Shown piece after piece: positions 5,752 to 31,877 of a stretch of 31,877 nt of DNA. The stretch comes from a virus: positions 1 to 31,877 of the IMG/VR virus record IMGVR_UViG_3300035458_000089; one strand, 5' to 3'. The notes below the pieces were generated by a model that made no database searches, was not told the origin of the DNA, and was given only the letters and a program-made list of their open reading frames with translations. Within the stretch, counting starts at the first letter, position 1; each line of letters opens with the position of its first letter. The position numbers were made by a program, and so were the translations under genes.

Positions 5752-5943
5752 ATGACAGATAAAAAGAAACGATTCCAAATGGCTTTCGATGTGAGCAAAG
5801 AAATACATACACAAGTTAAAGTATTAGCAGCTTTAAGAAATATTTCAATAAATAACTGGATGGCAAGGGCAATTAATGATCGTATAGCAAAAGAAACTAA
5901 ATATGATGAAAAAACAAAGGAACTATATGATAGCAATGGTTAA
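5752..5943 (+). CDS. Arc/CopG-type ribbon-helix-helix regulator
   Basis: 63 residues, ATG with GAAAGG 9 bases upstream. Residues about 6-45 (KRFQMAFDVSKEIHTQVK, then ALRNISINNWMARAINDRI) fit the ribbon-helix-helix fold: a short beta strand FQMAFDV followed by two helices, as in phage Arc and Mnt. Such proteins bind operators as dimers of dimers. It is one of few plus-strand genes, lies between an internal-protein gene and the first fibre gene, and is divergent from the fibre. In P22 the Arc and Mnt repressors lie at the same place (immI). The likely target is the 5.64-5.75 kb intergenic region. An antitoxin role is the alternative, given the small membrane peptide encoded just downstream. Confidence 0.8.
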   Translation: MTDKKKRFQMAFDVSKEIHTQVKVLAALRNISINNWMARAINDRIAKETKYDEKTKELYDSNG

Positions 5944-7077: not shown

Positions 7078-7695
7078 TTAACTTTGCAATTTTTTATTGA
7101 GTAAGAAAGATTGATAGAAAGATGGGGCAGCTTGTGCAGCGCCTTGTAGTAGATTCTCTCCAAAACCAGGCTGATGTTGTTGATAGATGTTTTGAAATGA
7201 AGGACTTAAGCCCAAAGCAAGTTGTTGTAACGCATTTTGTCTATTTTGTTGGCCGTATTGCGATTGCATTGCAGCGAGGTTTTCACTTAATCCTGCTCCA
7301 GCTTGTCCCAATTGAGCAGCAAATGCTGGCGAACTAGTAGAATTTTGACCCATACTCGCAAAACGTTCAGCAAGTGAAGGAACTGTTTGCTGACTAAATT
7401 GACTTCTTGCTTGTTGTGCAATTGGTTCAAAACCAGAATAAGGATTTTGTAATCCTTCATGACCTTGTTGTAAAAGAAATTGTAATACACTTGCCTGTTC
7501 AGGACTTATTATTGGAACTTGTTCCACTCCACCTTCTTTTCCACCACCACTTAATAAACTTGTAAGGAAACCAAGTATTCCTCCTCCTGCTGCACCAACA
7601 GCTGCACCAACCCCAGGAACTACTGCATTTCCTATTCCCGCTCCACCGCCTGCTCCACCTAATGCCGCTTTTAAAGCATCAATCCAATTTGCCAT
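7078..7695 (-). CDS. Glycine-rich internal virion protein candidate
   Basis: 205 residues, ATG with TAGGAG upstream. Residues 8-50 are a hydrophobic glycine/alanine stretch (LGGAGGGAGIGNAVVPGVG and GAAVGAAGGGILGFLTSLL) able to enter a membrane. Residues 60-205 are a glutamine-rich helical part (FSQQTVPSLAERFASMGQNS, then QYGQQNRQNALQQLALGL). Proteins with a glycine-zipper head and Q-rich tail occur at this position in many P22-like phages as ejection proteins that make a pore in the host envelope (family knowledge; function here inferred). It is translated just ahead of the 336-residue internal protein and shares its Q-rich character. Confidence 0.6.
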   Translation of the reverse strand: MANWIDALKAALGGAGGGAGIGNAVVPGVGAAVGAAGGGILGFLTSLLSGGGKEGGVEQVPIISPEQASVLQFLLQQGHEGLQNPYSGFEPIAQQARSQFSQQTVPSLAERFASMGQNSTSSPAFAAQLGQAGAGLSENLAAMQSQYGQQNRQNALQQLALGLSPSFQNIYQQHQPGFGENLLQGAAQAAPSFYQSFLLNKKLQS

Positions 7696-8265: not shown

Positions 8266-8447
8266 TATAATCTCTCAATATGAATAATGTCTTTCAGTGT
8301 TTTTTTAATCTCATAATCAACATAAGGAATAATCACATTAATATCCATTTCGCTTTCAGGATATAGTTCGAATAAACAAGGAAGATTATCATTAAACTTC
8401 AATAATATGTTAACTAAATCTATCATTTCTTGTGTCGTTCTATCCAT
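8265..8447 (-). CDS. Small acidic hypothetical protein
   Basis: 60 residues from ATG 8447, preceded by AAGGA; an in-frame ATG at 8510 lies inside the nozzle gene and has no ribosome site. The protein (MDRTTQEMIDLVNILLKFND, later PESEMDINVIIPYVDYEIKK) is mostly helical and acidic, with no known motif. It starts 7 bases after the nozzle stop and its TAA overlaps the next ATG, so it sits in a translationally coupled chain. A tail assembly helper is possible but unproven. Confidence 0.65.
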   Translation of the reverse strand: MDRTTQEMIDLVNILLKFNDNLPCLFELYPESEMDINVIIPYVDYEIKKTLKDIIHIERL

Positions 8448-8454
8448 TATTTCC

Positions 8455-10680
8455 TTATTGGAATCGATAACTTGTAGGTTGAGCGTATATACACATTGCA
8501 TGGAGAGCAAACCCGGATTGCATCACATTTATATCTCTCATTTGAGCATCATTCATAATTAATTGAAGCTGAACAACTTCACCATCAGCTTGGAAGTATA
8601 CAGGATGCCATAAACGAACTGAATCTGATTCAAAAGGTATCTCAGGATAGGCAAAGGTATCCAATGTTCCTGTGCCTAATAGAACACCATTACCTAAACT
8701 ATCTTGTAATAGCGGTGTAACTGAAGTTGATACATAAAAATCGACTTGAATTTGTCCTGCAGGAGTGTTATCAACCATGAAGTCTACTTTAGAGACATAG
8801 TTATTTCTACCTTGTTTTGCATAGAAATTATATTCTTTTGTTGTGATAGATATTTGACTAACGCGGGCTATTAAACCACCACCAATATATGTTCCGGTAA
8901 ATAATGCAACGGGTCCTATTTCAAATGTATTAGCATCTAAAACGTTTGTTACTTGGAATATTTGATTATTTAGACCATTTGAGGTATCTGACCATGTAGA
9001 ACCTTCAATAAATATATAATCTTCATCTCTAAGATTATGCTCTATAACAGTTAATGTAGTTATTACGCCTGTTAAGAAAACATTGGTTATTTGCAACACA
9101 GGAGCATTAGTAGGATCATCAGCATCGCAAATAAATGTATAACCTTCCTGATTACCTGCAATAACTTGTCTAAATTTTGCTTGAACTGAACCGCTATCCC
9201 AGGTAACTGTATCATCCCAAGTGATTGTTGTAGAAGTCCATAAAATTCCATTAACAGGTTGAAAATATCCAAAACAGGTAATTGAGTCATCATTAAATGC
9301 CCATGTACCAGTTTTATAGTTAAAGATTAAAACTCTGTTAGGATAAGGAAAATCATCAGAAGCCTGAGTGTCAGGGAAAGTCCAATAAACCATCTCTACA
9401 TAAAAATCTCTAATTCCATAAACTCTAAATACACCTTGACCATCATTATGGATATCAAAAACTGTATCTGGAATTTTTTCATCTATACGTTCTACATTGG
9501 CACCATTACAAGCATGAATACCAACATTTCCTACACCGATACATATTTTATCAAATGGTACAATAGAGAATGTAGATTCTGCACCAAGTTCAGTATTGAT
9601 TTGTTGCCAGTTAAATGGATATGCCTGGTTACCCGTATATACAAGTTCCCATGTAGATCGTTCAAAGAAAACTATAAGACGATCTTTAACAAATTCTACT
9701 GTAATAATTGCTTCAGTTGTTGATGCATCAATTGCATTTCCACGCCCAGGAATATCCTGACGCCATGCTGAAGCATCTAAAGGTGACCCTACTTGTGAAT
9801 AGCGACATCTATTACTGAAATTAGTTCCTGGTAATGCATTTGCAGGACCTTCCCATGTATTAAACATCACTAATCTATTCTTAAACGGAACAATGATTCG
9901 TGCAGAATTAAGAAAATTTGGTGTTGCATCTATTTGAGGATTGAAGTTATTCCACTGCGTTCCATCATAGTAACGCATAAAATTAGGCTCATTCTCATTA
10001 AAGTTTGTCACAAAGAATATTTTAGCCGATGCATCTGCCCCAGTCCACGTTGTTGCCCAAAAAAACTGAGAGTTATCACCAGTCCAGACTGCAGCTCCAG
10101 GTGTAGCTTCAGCTGAAATTCTATTCCATGCACCCATAACAAATGTATATGCATAACGAGTATCAAATCCAACTACAAATTCATCGTTGATACTAATTTG
10201 TTCATAGGTCAGTAATCCCATAACAGGAAGATTGGGATAAAATATTACGGGAGTTGCGTCAGGTAAGGCAACGCCAGTAATATTAAAAGCTGATGTTGTA
10301 AGATTATATGTCGCTGGTGCGAGAGAATTATCTGTACGCAGCATTTGCTGTGCACCTGGTGCCGGATTATATACCGTAAATACTATTGTACCTATGCTAA
10401 ATGCCTGACCTATACTTGTCGGTAATCCAGCATCTGCTAAAATAGTTCTAACATTACTATTTAAAGTTCCGCCTGTTATTGTTCCTATATTAATACCTAA
10501 ACGAGTACCTAAAGGACTATCGCCAAGCCATCGTGATCCAAAACGTTTTCTTACGCGTCCTCTAAAAACATAAGCATTATTAAGTTCAGAAAATGCCTCA
10601 TCTGGTATCAACCATGGTTTAACATTGGTTTGAAGACCACTATTTTGATCATAAGGAGCGATAAAAAAACGATCTGCCAT
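8455..10680 (-). CDS. Tail hub/nozzle protein (P22 gp10-like stabilisation protein)
   Basis: 741 residues. It starts MADRFFIAPYDQNSGLQTNV and soon has EAFSELNNAYVFRGRVRKRFG, the typical opening of large podoviral tail nozzle or DNA-stabilisation proteins, where a propeller of repeated beta blades closes the tail tube. Blade-like repeats with aromatic residues run through residues 150-480 (FKNRLVMFNTWEG, VKDRLIVFFERSTWELVY). At about 525-610 lies an inserted beta domain (VIEHNLRDEDYIFIEG, then LNNQIFQVTNV, TFEIGP) resembling the FCCH-type domain found in other phage structural proteins. P22 gp10 has 472 residues, so this one is longer. Its position after the adaptor gene and before internal proteins matches P22 order. 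Confidence 0.75.
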   Translation of the reverse strand: MADRFFIAPYDQNSGLQTNVKPWLIPDEAFSELNNAYVFRGRVRKRFGSRWLGDSPLGTRLGINIGTITGGTLNSNVRTILADAGLPTSIGQAFSIGTIVFTVYNPAPGAQQMLRTDNSLAPATYNLTTSAFNITGVALPDATPVIFYPNLPVMGLLTYEQISINDEFVVGFDTRYAYTFVMGAWNRISAEATPGAAVWTGDNSQFFWATTWTGADASAKIFFVTNFNENEPNFMRYYDGTQWNNFNPQIDATPNFLNSARIIVPFKNRLVMFNTWEGPANALPGTNFSNRCRYSQVGSPLDASAWRQDIPGRGNAIDASTTEAIITVEFVKDRLIVFFERSTWELVYTGNQAYPFNWQQINTELGAESTFSIVPFDKICIGVGNVGIHACNGANVERIDEKIPDTVFDIHNDGQGVFRVYGIRDFYVEMVYWTFPDTQASDDFPYPNRVLIFNYKTGTWAFNDDSITCFGYFQPVNGILWTSTTITWDDTVTWDSGSVQAKFRQVIAGNQEGYTFICDADDPTNAPVLQITNVFLTGVITTLTVIEHNLRDEDYIFIEGSTWSDTSNGLNNQIFQVTNVLDANTFEIGPVALFTGTYIGGGLIARVSQISITTKEYNFYAKQGRNNYVSKVDFMVDNTPAGQIQVDFYVSTSVTPLLQDSLGNGVLLGTGTLDTFAYPEIPFESDSVRLWHPVYFQADGEVVQLQLIMNDAQMRDINVMQSGFALHAMCIYAQPTSYRFQ

Positions 10681-17057: not shown

Positions 17058-17097
17058 TTTGTTGCACGAATGGTAGTTTAAGACATTATGCAACAAA
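17058..17097. repeat. Inverted repeat in divergent intergenic region
   Basis: Arms TTTGTTGCA (17058-17066) and TGCAACAAA (17089-17097), perfect 9 bp, 22 bases between. A further TTGTTGC occurs near 17130. It lies in the 328-base region between the divergent start at 17019 and the secreted-protein gene at 17348 and may be an operator for head-gene transcription. Confidence 0.5.
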
Positions 17098-17206
17098 AAT
17101 GATAAAAAGCCTTTATTTTTCATAAAAAACAATTGTTGCTTTGTAGCGTAATCATAGTAAAAAAACAAAACTATATCAAAAATTGAGTTTAAAAAACTAT
17201 TTATTC

Positions 17207-17235
17207 TTTACACACTGCATAATATATGTTATTAT
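17207..17235 (+). promoter_or_regulatory. Promoter of the secreted-protein cassette
   Basis: TTTACA (17207-17212), exactly 17 bases, TATTAT (17230-17235). Both boxes match 5 of 6 consensus bases. The leader to the ATG at 17348 is about 105 bases and contains a three-codon reading frame with a perfect ribosome site (17267-17292). Confidence 0.6.
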
Positions 17236-17266
17236 TTTTCCAAGTAGTTACATAACAGAATTATTT

Positions 17267-17292
17267 AGGAGGCGTTTACTATGTTCGAATAA
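17267..17292 (+). promoter_or_regulatory. Perfect ribosome site before a three-codon leader frame
   Basis: AGGAGG (17267-17272), 8 bases, then ATG TTC GAA TAA (17281-17292). This is the best ribosome site of the cassette, yet the frame encodes only Met-Phe-Glu. It stands 55 bases before the real start at 17348, so it may be a regulatory leader or the relic of a lost gene start. Confidence 0.5.
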
Positions 17293-17347
17293 CCACACAT
17301 CTCTTTTCGTATGTCGTTATATATTAATTTCACTAAACAGGATTTAT

Positions 17348-18109
17348 ATGAAAAAAGCACTAATATTATTATCATTTATGTCAGCAACTATGTTTTCTAT
17401 GGAATTAGATCGCGTTAGTTATGCTGATAATAAGAACAAAATGTACATTGAACCATTCTCAGTAAAGGTTCCAGAACGATTAGGATCATTAGATCTTTAT
17501 CATAGTAAAAAAGGTTTCTATGTTCGCCAAGACGATAAGAAACAAGCTATTAAGAAATACTTCACCGATCCTATGTTGCGAGACATAACAAAACCACAGT
17601 TAAAAGCTTTCTTAGCGAACGGATACCTTACTGTCAACCAAATGGAAGATGGTGAGTATTCACTTAAAGCTAAAGGACGTATGGTCGGCGGTGGACCTAT
17701 CTTTGGTACAATTGCTTATTGGGTAACTAAATCATTGTGTTACGGAACAGCAGTTGGTGCTATAGGAGCAACAGTTGTTGCAACAGGTGGGGCCGTTGGT
17801 GGGGCTGTCGGTGGAGGAGCATTTCTTGCTGGAAATGCAGTCATAGGTACCGCCGCAGCAACAACTGCAACAACTGCTATAGCTACAACAACTGGTATTG
17901 TAACAGGTACAGTGGTAACTGGAGCAACCGTAGCAACTGGAGCTGGCCTTGTAGGAGCAACAATTACTGGTGCAGGTTTGGCTGGAACAGCAGCAACGAC
18001 TACTGCCGCAGTTGTTACCAGTGCCGGTGGAATTGGAGCAACAATAGCGGGAGTTGAAGCATTATCGGTAGCAGTTGGAACATTCTTTGGAATGTTACCT
18101 ACTCCATAA
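17348..18109 (+). CDS. Secreted protein with long Gly/Ala/Thr zipper tail (GTIAYW motif)
   Basis: 253 residues from ATG 17348 (AGGA 6 bases upstream); reading further upstream to 17183 needs a non-ATG start and no site. Residues 1-17 (MKKALILLSFMSATMFS) are a signal peptide. Residues 18-115 are charged and soluble (YIEPFSVKVPERLGSLDLYH, YFTDPMLRDITKPQLKAFLA). At about 118-137 comes GTIAYWVTKSLCYGTAVG, then some 115 residues almost only of Gly, Ala, Thr and Val (GATVVATGGAVGGAVGGG...), a glycine-zipper able to insert in or span a membrane. The third gene of the cassette has the same signal/GTIAYW design. No homologue is recognised. Envelope modification, superinfection exclusion or host interaction would fit; I cannot decide. 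Confidence 0.75.
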   Translation: MKKALILLSFMSATMFSMELDRVSYADNKNKMYIEPFSVKVPERLGSLDLYHSKKGFYVRQDDKKQAIKKYFTDPMLRDITKPQLKAFLANGYLTVNQMEDGEYSLKAKGRMVGGGPIFGTIAYWVTKSLCYGTAVGAIGATVVATGGAVGGAVGGGAFLAGNAVIGTAAATTATTAIATTTGIVTGTVVTGATVATGAGLVGATITGAGLAGTAATTTAAVVTSAGGIGATIAGVEALSVAVGTFFGMLPTP

Positions 18110-18122
18110 GGTATAAAATAAA

Positions 18123-18326
18123 ATGAACTATATTTATTATGTCAAACAACAAGTAAAAATGTATACACTAGGCGCTATCGCTATGAGCACAGCCTATACA
18201 ATTACACGTTATTTTGAATGGAGAGAAGTAACTACTTTAACTCCAGCATACATTATATCATTTTCATTAACATATATTTTTCTTGGTGCGCTTTTTAAAC
18301 AATATTTCGATTCATTAAAACAATAA
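18123..18326 (+). CDS. Two-helix small membrane protein
   Basis: 67 residues, ATG with AAGG 11 bases upstream, 13 bases after the preceding stop. Two hydrophobic segments at about 13-29 (MYTLGAIAMSTAYTITR) and 40-60 (LTPAYIISFSLTYIFLGALF), separated by a charged turn FEWREVTT, with a charged end. No family recognised. Size and topology would fit a holin or a membrane partner of the two flanking secreted proteins. Since the phage shows no recognisable endolysin, the holin idea is open. Confidence 0.6.
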   Translation: MNYIYYVKQQVKMYTLGAIAMSTAYTITRYFEWREVTTLTPAYIISFSLTYIFLGALFKQYFDSLKQ

Positions 18327-18344
18327 ATTAATTTAGGGATCTCT

Positions 18345-18710
18345 ATGAAAAAGATTTTATTATTATCATTACTTTCATCATCAGTAGTTGCTATGCAACC
18401 GAAGCGAATAGAAGAAATAAAGTCAGAAGATAAATCATTGAAATATGATCTGGCAAAAAATGAACTTTCTCCGATTGCTCAGACAAATGACAGCGATTTC
18501 TCACGCAATGCTAAAAAATATGCATTCGCTATCGGTACTATCGCTTATTGGTTGAGCAAGACTGTGTGTACTGGATCAGTAGTTGGTTCATGTTTTGAAA
18601 CAATAGTCGCACCAGAACTCTCATCAAGAAAAGCAATTGGATCGTTCGCTTTATTCGCTGCAGAAAAAGCTTTTACTACAACTGTTATTCAAAAGCGTGA
18701 TCACGAATAA
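18345..18710 (+). CDS. Secreted protein sharing the GTIAYW motif
   Basis: 121 residues, ATG with TAGGGA 6 bases upstream. Residues 1-16 (MKKILLLSLLSSSVVA) are a signal peptide with a VVA cleavage site. Residues 17-60 are charged, and at about 64-85 stands IGTIAYWLSKTVCTGSVVG, nearly the same as in the 253-residue protein at 17348-18109, with the single Cys conserved. The long Gly/Ala tail is missing and replaced by CFETIVAPELSSRKAIGSFA and a short basic end. The two are thus paralogues with a common core. Unknown function; last gene of the cassette, followed by a strong terminator. Confidence 0.7.
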   Translation: MKKILLLSLLSSSVVAMQPKRIEEIKSEDKSLKYDLAKNELSPIAQTNDSDFSRNAKKYAFAIGTIAYWLSKTVCTGSVVGSCFETIVAPELSSRKAIGSFALFAAEKAFTTTVIQKRDHE

Positions 18711-18727
18711 ATAAACTATCTATAAAA

Positions 18728-18759
18728 CAATATCCCCCTAATTTTCTAGGGGGATATTG
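18728..18759. terminator. Strong bidirectional terminator hairpin
   Basis: Arms CAATATCCCCCTA (18728-18740) and TAGGGGGATATTG (18747-18759) give a perfect 13-bp stem with a 6-base loop. It lies between the converging plus-strand cassette (ends 18710) and the minus-strand packaging operon (ends 18793). On the minus strand TTTTAT follows at once; on the plus strand there is no T-run. Confidence 0.8.
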
Positions 18760-29784: not shown

Positions 29785-31278
29785 TTATATCAGTGAACCA
29801 CTAAAGAAGTTAACTATTCCTGTTACTGGTGAATCTGCAGATCCTGCAATTCCATCGAGGTTAATATTTGTACCTCCAGTATTATTAGTAACAGTTACAA
29901 AAGCGGTATCTCCTGCAACCATGAAAGTATAAAAATTACTATTAAATTGACCATATCTTGCCCTCTGCAATGTTGATCCAGTTAAAAAACCTACACCTAC
30001 TATCATTGCAAAAGTTCGAGTGCTTGTAACAAGATTTGCATACACAGGTTGTTGAACTTGATATGTTCCACATTCACATAATATACCTACAGAAAAATTA
30101 TATACCCCAGTAGTAGGAGCAGTAAATATACCAGTTCCTATATTATAGTTACCACCTATATTATCTACAATAGTATCATATAAAATTGTATAAACTTCAC
30201 CACTACCTGTTACATTAGTAACTGTATCAAACATATATACAAAGAATGATGGTACTGCAATTATACCAGTTGCTGAAATGGTAATTGTATTTGCACCAGC
30301 AGTCACAGCTATACCACCACCTGCGGTGATAACAGCGGTTCCAAGTTGATTATTAGCTTCAGTAACTACAGTAGCAGTAGATCCTACATTAACTCCATCA
30401 ATACCAGATATAAAGGCTTGATGAAGCTGACCGCCTCCAACTCCAGTACCTGCACCAATTCTTAAGGTATTTGTTTCGGCAATAACTCCTACTACATTTG
30501 TACCTATAAGTATATTACTACTTTCACTTCCTGTATAAGATTGTCCTGTAAGTGAACCGATTAAAACATTTGTAGATCCAGTTAATAACGATTTGCCTAC
30601 ACGATTTCCAAGCATAACATTACCATTACCTGATGTAAGCGATACTGCACAATCAAATCCTAATACAGTATTCGATTGTCCTGATATTGTAGCATTTCCT
30701 GATCCATTACCAATAATAGTATTATCATTAGTATCTGTAACATTAAATAATACCGTATCAGTTGCGCCAAAGAATGCTACACTAGATCCTGCATTTTGTG
30801 CTACTGTATCTGCTATTAAATTTATTACACCAAGTACAGGTGCTGCAGTCCCATCATCGGTGACTATTGTTTGAACAACATCACCGCTACCACCAGTTGA
30901 ATTAAGTGTAATGGTATTAGTTCCTGGATTACCATCAAAAGTAAAACCTACAATACCGGATACCAGATTAATATTGGAGTTAATATCAGGGTCAATAGCC
31001 CCACCGGTATCACCGGTGAGGGTATCTAATATTCCTGTACCGCCAGCATTATCTATCTTAGTCCACGTTGCTAACGAACCTTTGGACATCATATCTCCCG
31101 CAAGAGATACGAGTACCCAAACATTTTGATTTGTCTCATTAAGCCATAAGTCACCTAATGAGACATTTTGTGTATCAAATTGGTTTGGATCTCTCATGTT
31201 AAATGTCCAATTGGGTGGTTGATTAGCATTGGTTCCGGTATAAGCGGTTCCTTGTTTTCCACCCAATCTATTACTCAT
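29785..31278 (-). CDS. Tail fibre with C-terminal C1q/TNF-like domain
   Basis: 497 residues. ATG 31278 with GGAGG 8 bases upstream overlaps the preceding stop (ATGA). Residues 1-75 are the docking domain shared with the fibre at 2201-2863 (MSNRLGGKQGTAYTGTNANQ). Residues about 185-345 are NTxxGxxxG repeats and the ESSNILIG...FISGIDGVNVGS module, matching the large fibre. Residues about 345-497 (YTILYDTIVDNIGGNYNIGT, GIFTAPTTGVYNFSV, later FMVAGDTAFVTVTNN and VNFFSGSLI) fit the C1q/TNF jelly-roll, including FTAPxxGxYxF and AGDxxxV. Such trimeric heads bind proteins or glycans. Probably an alternative receptor-binding fibre. It is the last gene of the fibre module. Confidence 0.85.
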   Translation of the reverse strand: MSNRLGGKQGTAYTGTNANQPPNWTFNMRDPNQFDTQNVSLGDLWLNETNQNVWVLVSLAGDMMSKGSLATWTKIDNAGGTGILDTLTGDTGGAIDPDINSNINLVSGIVGFTFDGNPGTNTITLNSTGGSGDVVQTIVTDDGTAAPVLGVINLIADTVAQNAGSSVAFFGATDTVLFNVTDTNDNTIIGNGSGNATISGQSNTVLGFDCAVSLTSGNGNVMLGNRVGKSLLTGSTNVLIGSLTGQSYTGSESSNILIGTNVVGVIAETNTLRIGAGTGVGGGQLHQAFISGIDGVNVGSTATVVTEANNQLGTAVITAGGGIAVTAGANTITISATGIIAVPSFFVYMFDTVTNVTGSGEVYTILYDTIVDNIGGNYNIGTGIFTAPTTGVYNFSVGILCECGTYQVQQPVYANLVTSTRTFAMIVGVGFLTGSTLQRARYGQFNSNFYTFMVAGDTAFVTVTNNTGGTNINLDGIAGSADSPVTGIVNFFSGSLI

Positions 31279-31877
31279 TGTTTTGCCTCCAAAGCAATGA
31301 TACGCGCATTAAGCTTTTTAATTTCATTTAACAGTAATACTGGCAAATCATGATATTTAACAGTATAAGGATTCCCTTCTTCATCTTTTACAGCGAGATC
31401 AGGAAAGACTTCATATACTTCTTCAGCGATTAAACCGTACTGTTTTGTTTCAGTTGGATCTGAATTATAAGCAAAGGTAACTGGATTAAGTTGGTAAATA
31501 TTATCAGAATCAGTTTCCATAGGATTAATGTTATGTTTGAATCGTCTTGATGAAACAACAGTACCAAGTAAACCAGTATTATCGACAACAACAGGCAAAC
31601 CGCTCACTCCAACAGTTGTCCCAAATACACCAGCAGTAGTAATACCTCCAGATCCAGATTGAAGTATTAAACTTGACGTCGTATTAACACTTCCCACTGT
31701 TACTGTTTTTGCGCCAGCACCTGTACCTATAACTATACCTGTTGCTGTAGCATCATTCGATATCGCTATAAGTCCTGTACCAGAATTAATAGTAATAAGA
31801 CCATTGGTAGAGATTGCAGTTATAGCACCACTTCCAGAATGTAAAGATAGATTCGATGTACTAGTGGTACTTCCTAC
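31275..31877 (-). CDS. Large tail fibre, C-terminal part with S74 chaperone domain (enters from the right edge)
   Basis: 200 residues of an open frame entering from the right edge. The first part (VGSTTSTSNLSLHSGSG, then NDATATGIVIGTGAGAKTVT) has the same repeat unit as the left-edge fibre. The last 100 residues are a peptidase S74 intramolecular chaperone: SSRRFKHNI with the Ser and the Lys five residues later that make the self-cleaving dyad, YQLNPVTFAYNSD, KQYGLIAEEVYEVFPDL, and KYHDLPVLLLNEIKKLNARI ending in a coiled coil. This domain folds fibre trimers and then cuts itself off. It is almost surely the C-terminus of the gene that starts at 2191. The stop overlaps the start of the C1q fibre. 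Confidence 0.88.
   Translation of the reverse strand, partial: VGSTTSTSNLSLHSGSGAITAISTNGLITINSGTGLIAISNDATATGIVIGTGAGAKTVTVGSVNTTSSLILQSGSGGITTAGVFGTTVGVSGLPVVVDNTGLLGTVVSSRRFKHNINPMETDSDNIYQLNPVTFAYNSDPTETKQYGLIAEEVYEVFPDLAVKDEEGNPYTVKYHDLPVLLLNEIKKLNARIIALEAKQ

What the first reader, a model, noticed from the sequence alone, without database searches (positions are those of the whole stretch)
17207..18759. Self-contained plus-strand cassette of secreted proteins sharing a new GTIAYW motif
Inside the minus-strand head module lies a unit with its own promoter, three genes and a strong terminator. Two of the genes encode signal-peptide proteins that share GTIAYWxxKxxCxGxxVG but little else; one adds a 115-residue Gly/Ala/Thr/Val tail. 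A two-helix membrane protein lies between them. This looks like a moron operon that changes the host envelope (exclusion, lysis or interaction with a eukaryotic host of the bacterium). I know no described family with this motif.
Basis: partly seen in the sequence, partly recalled or inferred. Interest (0 to 1): 0.75.

Follow-up and report, generated by a model that had tools for sequence, protein, structure and literature searches.

The report
Phage envelope cassette with swappable tails
A group of unstudied P22-like phages carries a small accessory gene set that exports a protein with a conserved front part and an exchangeable membrane-inserting tail, always next to a matching tiny membrane protein; it probably alters the infected cell's envelope, perhaps to keep other phages out, but its function is untested.

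Summary
Three plus-strand genes (17348-18109, 18123-18326, 18345-18710) with a conserved promoter sit in a minus-strand P22-like head module. The GTIAYW motif shared by genes 1 and 3 is statistically real. The "terminator" hairpin carries its U-tract on the minus strand, so it ends the opposite operon.

Homologues occur only in related uncultured phages: 18 intact loci across two clades and one relocated copy. Gene 1 is a Sec-exported protein with a conserved ~80-aa domain and one of two unrelated hydrophobic tails. The small membrane gene directly downstream always matches the tail: tail A with a two-helix 60-93 aa protein, tail B with one-helix 31-53 aa protein(s). The window and its closest relative are ~90% identical across the front domain, but tail plus membrane gene are replaced as one block. 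Tail type follows neither front-domain phylogeny nor any core gene. The cassette is missing from 7 of 19 long genomes. A tiny SD-ATG-x-stop minigene is conserved in its leader.

Best reading: an accessory envelope module, most likely superinfection exclusion; a polymorphic toxin-immunity pair is the main rival. Lysis is less likely. No known family matched. No host was found and nothing was tested functionally.

The parts
17068..17347 (.). Divergent intergenic and leader region; conserved GCAACA / TGTTGC sites at about 17060 (just outside), 17090 and 17134
   Evidence: Conserved in 11 relatives; positions
17207..17235 (+). Sigma-70-like promoter with extended -10 (TTTACA-17-TGTTATTAT)
17267..17292 (+). 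Leader minigene: AGGAGG, then ATG TTC GAA TAA at 17281-17292
   Evidence: SD-ATG-1 to 2 codons-stop present in 11 of 11 aligned relatives against 2.4% of shuffles; also in 3 further loci
17348..18109 (+). Gene 1, 253 aa: signal peptide, conserved N-domain, tail A
17459..17695 (+). Conserved N-domain of gene 1 (strands and one helix; dN/dS 0.06 against L005)
17696..18106 (+). Tail A of gene 1, low-complexity G/A/T/V with conserved ends
   Evidence: replaced by tail B in L005
17705..17758 (+). GTIAYWVTKSLCYGTAVG motif at the start of tail A
18123..18326 (+). Gene 2, 67 aa membrane protein, the partner that goes with tail A
18345..18710 (+). Gene 3, 121 aa exported protein with a copy of the tail-A start motif; optional
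18534..18587 (+). GTIAYWLSKTVCTGSVVG motif in gene 3
18728..18759 (-). Intrinsic-terminator-like hairpin with its U-tract on the minus strand, ending the DUF6496 operon

Best explanation
This is an accessory envelope module (moron) of P22-like phages. Gene 1 is exported by Sec. Its conserved ~80-aa domain would sit in the periplasm, and its hydrophobic tail would insert into the inner membrane, where it pairs with the small membrane protein encoded directly downstream. Tail and partner form one exchangeable unit of two types; gene 3 is an optional secreted derivative of the tail-A start. The most likely purpose is superinfection exclusion: the membrane complex would disturb the DNA-ejection conduit of a second incoming phage, as SieA does in P22. 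Shown by sequence: accessory status, signal peptides, module exchange, constant pairing, purifying selection, conserved promoter and minigene. Inferred: membrane insertion, physical pairing, exclusion.
For: The module is carried by P22-like phages (portal E 6e-65), lies in a variable slot, and is absent from 7 of 19 long genomes. The tail is always followed by a short hydrophobic gene of the matching kind in 18 of 18 loci (for L026 the partner is 8420-8617), including a relocated copy beside tail-fibre-like genes (L075) and a distant clade (L126-L129). DNA identity between window and L005 falls from about 90% to about 50% over tail plus gene 2. Tail type is scattered over the N-domain tree, 7 changes against 6.4 in shuffles, and follows no core gene. 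Tail B is predicted as two long helices at pLDDT of about 80. P22 SieA is an inner-membrane block to DNA injection that also exists in three sequence types (PMC10883804).
Against: No sequence relation to SieA or any exclusion or defence family was found. Tail type does not track the ejection-protein-like genes, although SieA types also show no difference in target. Tail and partner are adjacent, so joint exchange could be simple linkage; only 2 independent exchanges sit on well-supported branches, 6 on the best tree. No integrase was found, so lysogenic expression is not shown. Exclusion itself is untested.
Confidence: 0.38

Rival explanations
1. Polymorphic toxin-immunity pair: the N-domain handles export or delivery, the exchangeable tail is a membrane-depolarising domain, and the small membrane protein is its cognate immunity protein. 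It would damage competitors, or the infected cell under some trigger.
For: Architecture matches: conserved N part, variable C part, matching membrane gene directly downstream. Gly/Ala-rich hydrophobic tails resemble EsxX and TelE, whose glycine zippers are needed for membrane damage and which are neutralised by immunity proteins (PMC12744356, PMC10434224). Gene 2 diverges fast, dN/dS 0.28-0.46 against 0.06-0.28 for the N-domain. A two-codon minigene controls toxin translation in axe-txe (PMC8708949).
Against: No delivery machinery and no known delivery domain. Zipper periodicity is only weakly above composition. L014 has two tandem N-domain genes with no partner between them. The benefit to a phage is unclear.
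Confidence: 0.28
2. Lysis or egress module: gene 2 is a holin-like protein and gene 1 an exported membrane disruptor for a host with an unusual envelope.
For: No endolysin, holin or spanin was recognised in the window; small membrane proteins plus an exported membrane-active protein fit loosely.
Against: Related phages lack the cassette. It has its own promoter on the strand opposite the late operon and no enzyme in it.
Confidence: 0.1
3. Secreted effector that helps the bacterial host in its environment, for example inside a protist; relatives carry other secreted cargo near the same place, such as a peptidase A4 family protein.
For: Cargo in and beside the same slot includes exported peptidase A4-like proteins, DapF-like, PhzF-like and TauD-like proteins.
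Against: The constant pairing with a membrane protein and the hydrophobic tail suggest the producer's own envelope. No host is known; two genome-collection scans found nothing.
Confidence: 0.12
4. Selfish or drifting accessory genes without a strong function, kept together by linkage only.
For: Tail and partner are adjacent, so joint exchange needs no functional link; genes 2 and 3 evolve fast.
Against: The N-domain is under strong purifying selection (dN/dS 0.06, close to the neighbouring 189-aa gene at 0.05), and promoter and minigene are conserved.
Confidence: 0.05

Closest known systems
P22 SieA superinfection exclusion (PMC10883804)
   Same: Accessory membrane-acting function of a P22-like phage; several divergent sequence types
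   Different: SieA is one protein of 162-164 aa with three predicted membrane helices and no signal sequence; here an exported protein with an exchangeable tail plus a separate small membrane partner, and no sequence match
Glycine-zipper polymorphic toxins EsxX and TelE with ExiAB / TipE (PMC12744356, PMC10434224)
   Same: Conserved N part, Gly-rich hydrophobic C part, immunity gene nearby
   Different: Those are LXG substrates of type VII secretion in Firmicutes; here a Sec signal peptide, a phage location, an unrelated N-domain and weak zipper periodicity
T4 Imm and Sp exclusion proteins (from general knowledge, not tested here)
   Same: Small membrane protein and a periplasmic protein used by a phage against superinfection
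   Different: Encoded separately, no exchangeable tail; no sequence relation was looked for beyond PHROGs
axe-txe minigene-controlled toxin-antitoxin operon (PMC8708949)
   Same: Two-codon ATG-x-TAA minigene with a Shine-Dalgarno in the leader of the regulated gene
   Different: In axe-txe it ends 15 nt before the toxin start and raises its translation; here it lies about 55-90 nt upstream and its effect is unknown

Membership tests
Phage moron | Extra gene(s) between conserved phage genes, absent from relatives | tested here: met
   Slot empty or with other cargo in relatives
Phage moron | Own promoter | tested here: met
   Promoter-like site conserved among relatives; activity not measured
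Phage moron | Own terminator | tested here: not met
   Hairpin present but U-tract on the minus strand
SieA exclusion family | Sequence homology to known SieA-type proteins | tested here: not met
   No PHROGs, Pfam, NCBIfam or PADLOC match and no hit in 50,697 phage records
SieA exclusion family | Blocks DNA injection by related phages | not testable with these tools
   Needs phage and host
Polymorphic toxin-immunity system | Conserved N part, exchangeable C part, matching small gene directly downstream | tested here: met
Polymorphic toxin-immunity system | Known delivery domain (LXG, Rhs, CdiA and others) | tested here: not met
   No family match
Polymorphic toxin-immunity system | C part toxic, neutralised by the downstream protein | not testable with these tools
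   Needs expression
Glycine-zipper membrane toxins | Extended (G/A/S)xxxGxxx(G/S/T) zipper beyond composition | tested here: inconclusive
   Window p = 0.0065, several relatives not significant
Phage lysis cassette | Present in all members of the phage group, with an endolysin | tested here: not met
   Absent from 7 of 19 genomes; no lysis enzyme recognised in it or in the window

The most novel reading that the evidence does not exclude
A phage-borne polymorphic membrane weapon or exclusion system: an exported carrier domain presents interchangeable membrane-inserting tails, each neutralised or positioned by its own tiny membrane protein, with expression set by an unusual start-stop minigene in the leader.
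Probability: 0.3. Interest if true: 0.75.

Novelty: new variant of a known kind. Interest (0 to 1): 0.5.

Why it matters
Cognate, exchangeable tail-partner units are well known in bacterial competition but unusual in phage exclusion or moron genes. If confirmed, the system would link polymorphic-toxin logic to phage superinfection control, give two swappable types for a direct specificity test, and add a phage case of start-stop minigene control.

Tried and rejected
Family searches of the three proteins and relatives in Pfam, PHROGs, NCBIfam, PADLOC, Rfam and PDB sequences gave nothing usable. Foldseek of both models against PDB, and of the tail-A model against viral structures, gave no significant match; weak likeness of the tail-B hairpin to ATP synthase c subunits and the AhlB pore is shape only (E above 1). 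tblastn against phages and plasmids: none. Genome-collection scans with gene 1 and with the portal found no relative, so no host could be named; these scans look for short peptide patterns and can miss distant relatives. A guess at Dependentiae from the signal-peptide style could not be tested and is not claimed. I tested whether tail type tracks the ejection-protein-like or other core genes: it does not. Leader RNA structure: RNAalifold found none. Joining the two contig ends gives stop codons, so simple circularity was not shown.

Full report
Observation. The window is a 31.9-kb virus record of a P22-like phage: portal (PF16510, E 6e-65), terminase and major head protein are recognised. In the minus-strand head module three plus-strand genes lie at 17348-18109, 18123-18326 and 18345-18710. 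Genes 1 and 3 begin with signal-peptide-like sequences and share the GTIAYW motif. A profile of the tail-A start built from relatives scores gene 3 at 23.0 bits, against a maximum of 9.4 in 4000 shuffles, so the shared motif is homology, not chance. The promoter at 17207 is conserved in 11 aligned loci. The hairpin at 18728-18759 is conserved, but its T-run is on the minus strand; it ends the convergent portal-DUF6496 operon.

Relatives. Scans of IMG/VR with gene 1, its domains and the portal gave homologues only in related uncultured phages. In the main clade the cassette always sits between the 189-aa gene and the DUF6496 gene. A distant clade (L126-L129) has it in the matching place. In L075 the same gene 1-partner unit lies beside tail-fibre-like genes. 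The slot is empty in several portal relatives and filled by other cargo in others; 7 of 19 long genomes lack the N-domain altogether.

Architecture. Gene 1 consists of a signal peptide, a conserved domain of about 80 residues ending in GGG, and one of two tails. Tail A starts with GTIAYWxTKxxCYG, continues as variable-length G/A/T/V-rich sequence and ends in VGxFFxxLPxxP. Tail B is 71 residues (GAxIGAFLGKAAVYVVGHGAI...ALGVATGPV). AlphaFold2 gives the N-domain strands and one helix at pLDDT about 70-86 in both models, tail B as two long helices at about 80, and tail A without confidence. Nothing in PDB or the viral library matches significantly.

Pairing and exchange. Directly downstream of gene 1 all 18 intact loci have a short hydrophobic gene: 60-93 aa and mostly two-helix after tail A (11 loci), 31-53 aa and essentially one-helix after tail B (7 loci), with an ATGA overlap in six of the seven type-B loci (L026 partner read). 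Between window and L005 the DNA is about 90% identical through promoter and N-domain, falls to about 50% over tail and gene 2, and recovers at the start of gene 3. On an N-domain tree tail type needs 7 changes, against a shuffled mean of 6.4; near neighbours such as window/L005 and L004/L007 differ in type. No core gene follows tail type. Caution: tail and partner are contiguous, so co-exchange alone does not prove interaction, and only 2 independent exchanges rest on strong branches (6 on the best tree).

Selection. dN/dS of the N-domain is 0.06 (window-L005), like the neighbouring 189-aa gene (0.05), and up to 0.28 in more distant pairs; tails are at 0.12-0.30, gene 2 at 0.28-0.46 and gene 3 at 0.34-0.39. 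The cassette is maintained, with the membrane partner and gene 3 changing fastest.

Leader. Upstream of gene 1 there are conserved GCAACA/TGTTGC sites and a Shine-Dalgarno followed by ATG, one or two codons and a stop, then usually AACCAC. This minigene is present in 11 of 11 aligned loci against 2.4% of shuffles and in three further main-clade loci. In a scan of 19 long genomes the SD-minigene followed by AACCAC was found only upstream of gene 1. Its sense codons vary while the early stop is kept. Its function is unknown; a two-codon minigene raises toxin translation in axe-txe (PMC8708949).

Interpretation. The sequence supports an accessory envelope module whose tail and small membrane protein form one exchangeable unit. 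Exclusion of superinfecting phages is the best single function because the carrier is a P22-like phage, P22 itself uses an inner-membrane exclusion protein with several sequence types (PMC10883804), and the cassette is dispensable. A toxin-immunity pair fits the architecture almost as well (EsxX, TelE). Lysis is less likely because relatives lack the cassette. No host was found, and nothing was tested experimentally.

Noticed in passing
window 17267-17292; same place in 13 related loci: Conserved start-stop minigene (SD, ATG, 1-2 codons, stop, usually AACCAC) in the leader of gene 1; L017 and L026 appear to have two in tandem.
   Followed up: partly
window 17060, 17090, 17134: Conserved GCAACA / TGTTGC sites between the divergent promoters, possible operators.
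   Followed up: partly
L031:8893-9732, L047:12608-13489, L060:12161-13000, L087:16344-17186: Exported peptidase A4-like proteins near the DUF6496 gene (PF01828 E 5e-25 for the L031 copy; the others by eye).
   Followed up: partly
L032:9459-10325, L047:14359-15417, L047:15467-16420: DapF-like, TauD-like and PhzF-like genes as alternative cargo in the same slot.
   Followed up: partly
L014:3331-4580, L026:9770-10075: Tandem N-domain genes without a partner between them, and an N-domain-only exported protein.
   Followed up: no
window, whole: No recognisable endolysin, holin or spanin, and no integrase, in the proteins searched with PHROGs; how this phage lyses its host is unknown.
   Followed up: partly
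window 5752-5943: Weakly Arc-like or HicB-like small gene on the plus strand beside the ejection-protein-like genes, reminiscent of the P22 immI position.
   Followed up: no
window 7078-7695: Virion-region protein with a very Gly/Ala-rich hydrophobic N-terminus, poorly conserved between relatives.
   Followed up: no
L047 (IMGVR_UViG_2651869533_000065): The only portal relative whose record number is not of the 3300 metagenome series; it may give the host.
   Followed up: partly
window ends, 1-2191 and 31275-31877: A tail-fibre-like gene runs off both ends, but the direct join of the ends is out of frame.
   Followed up: partly
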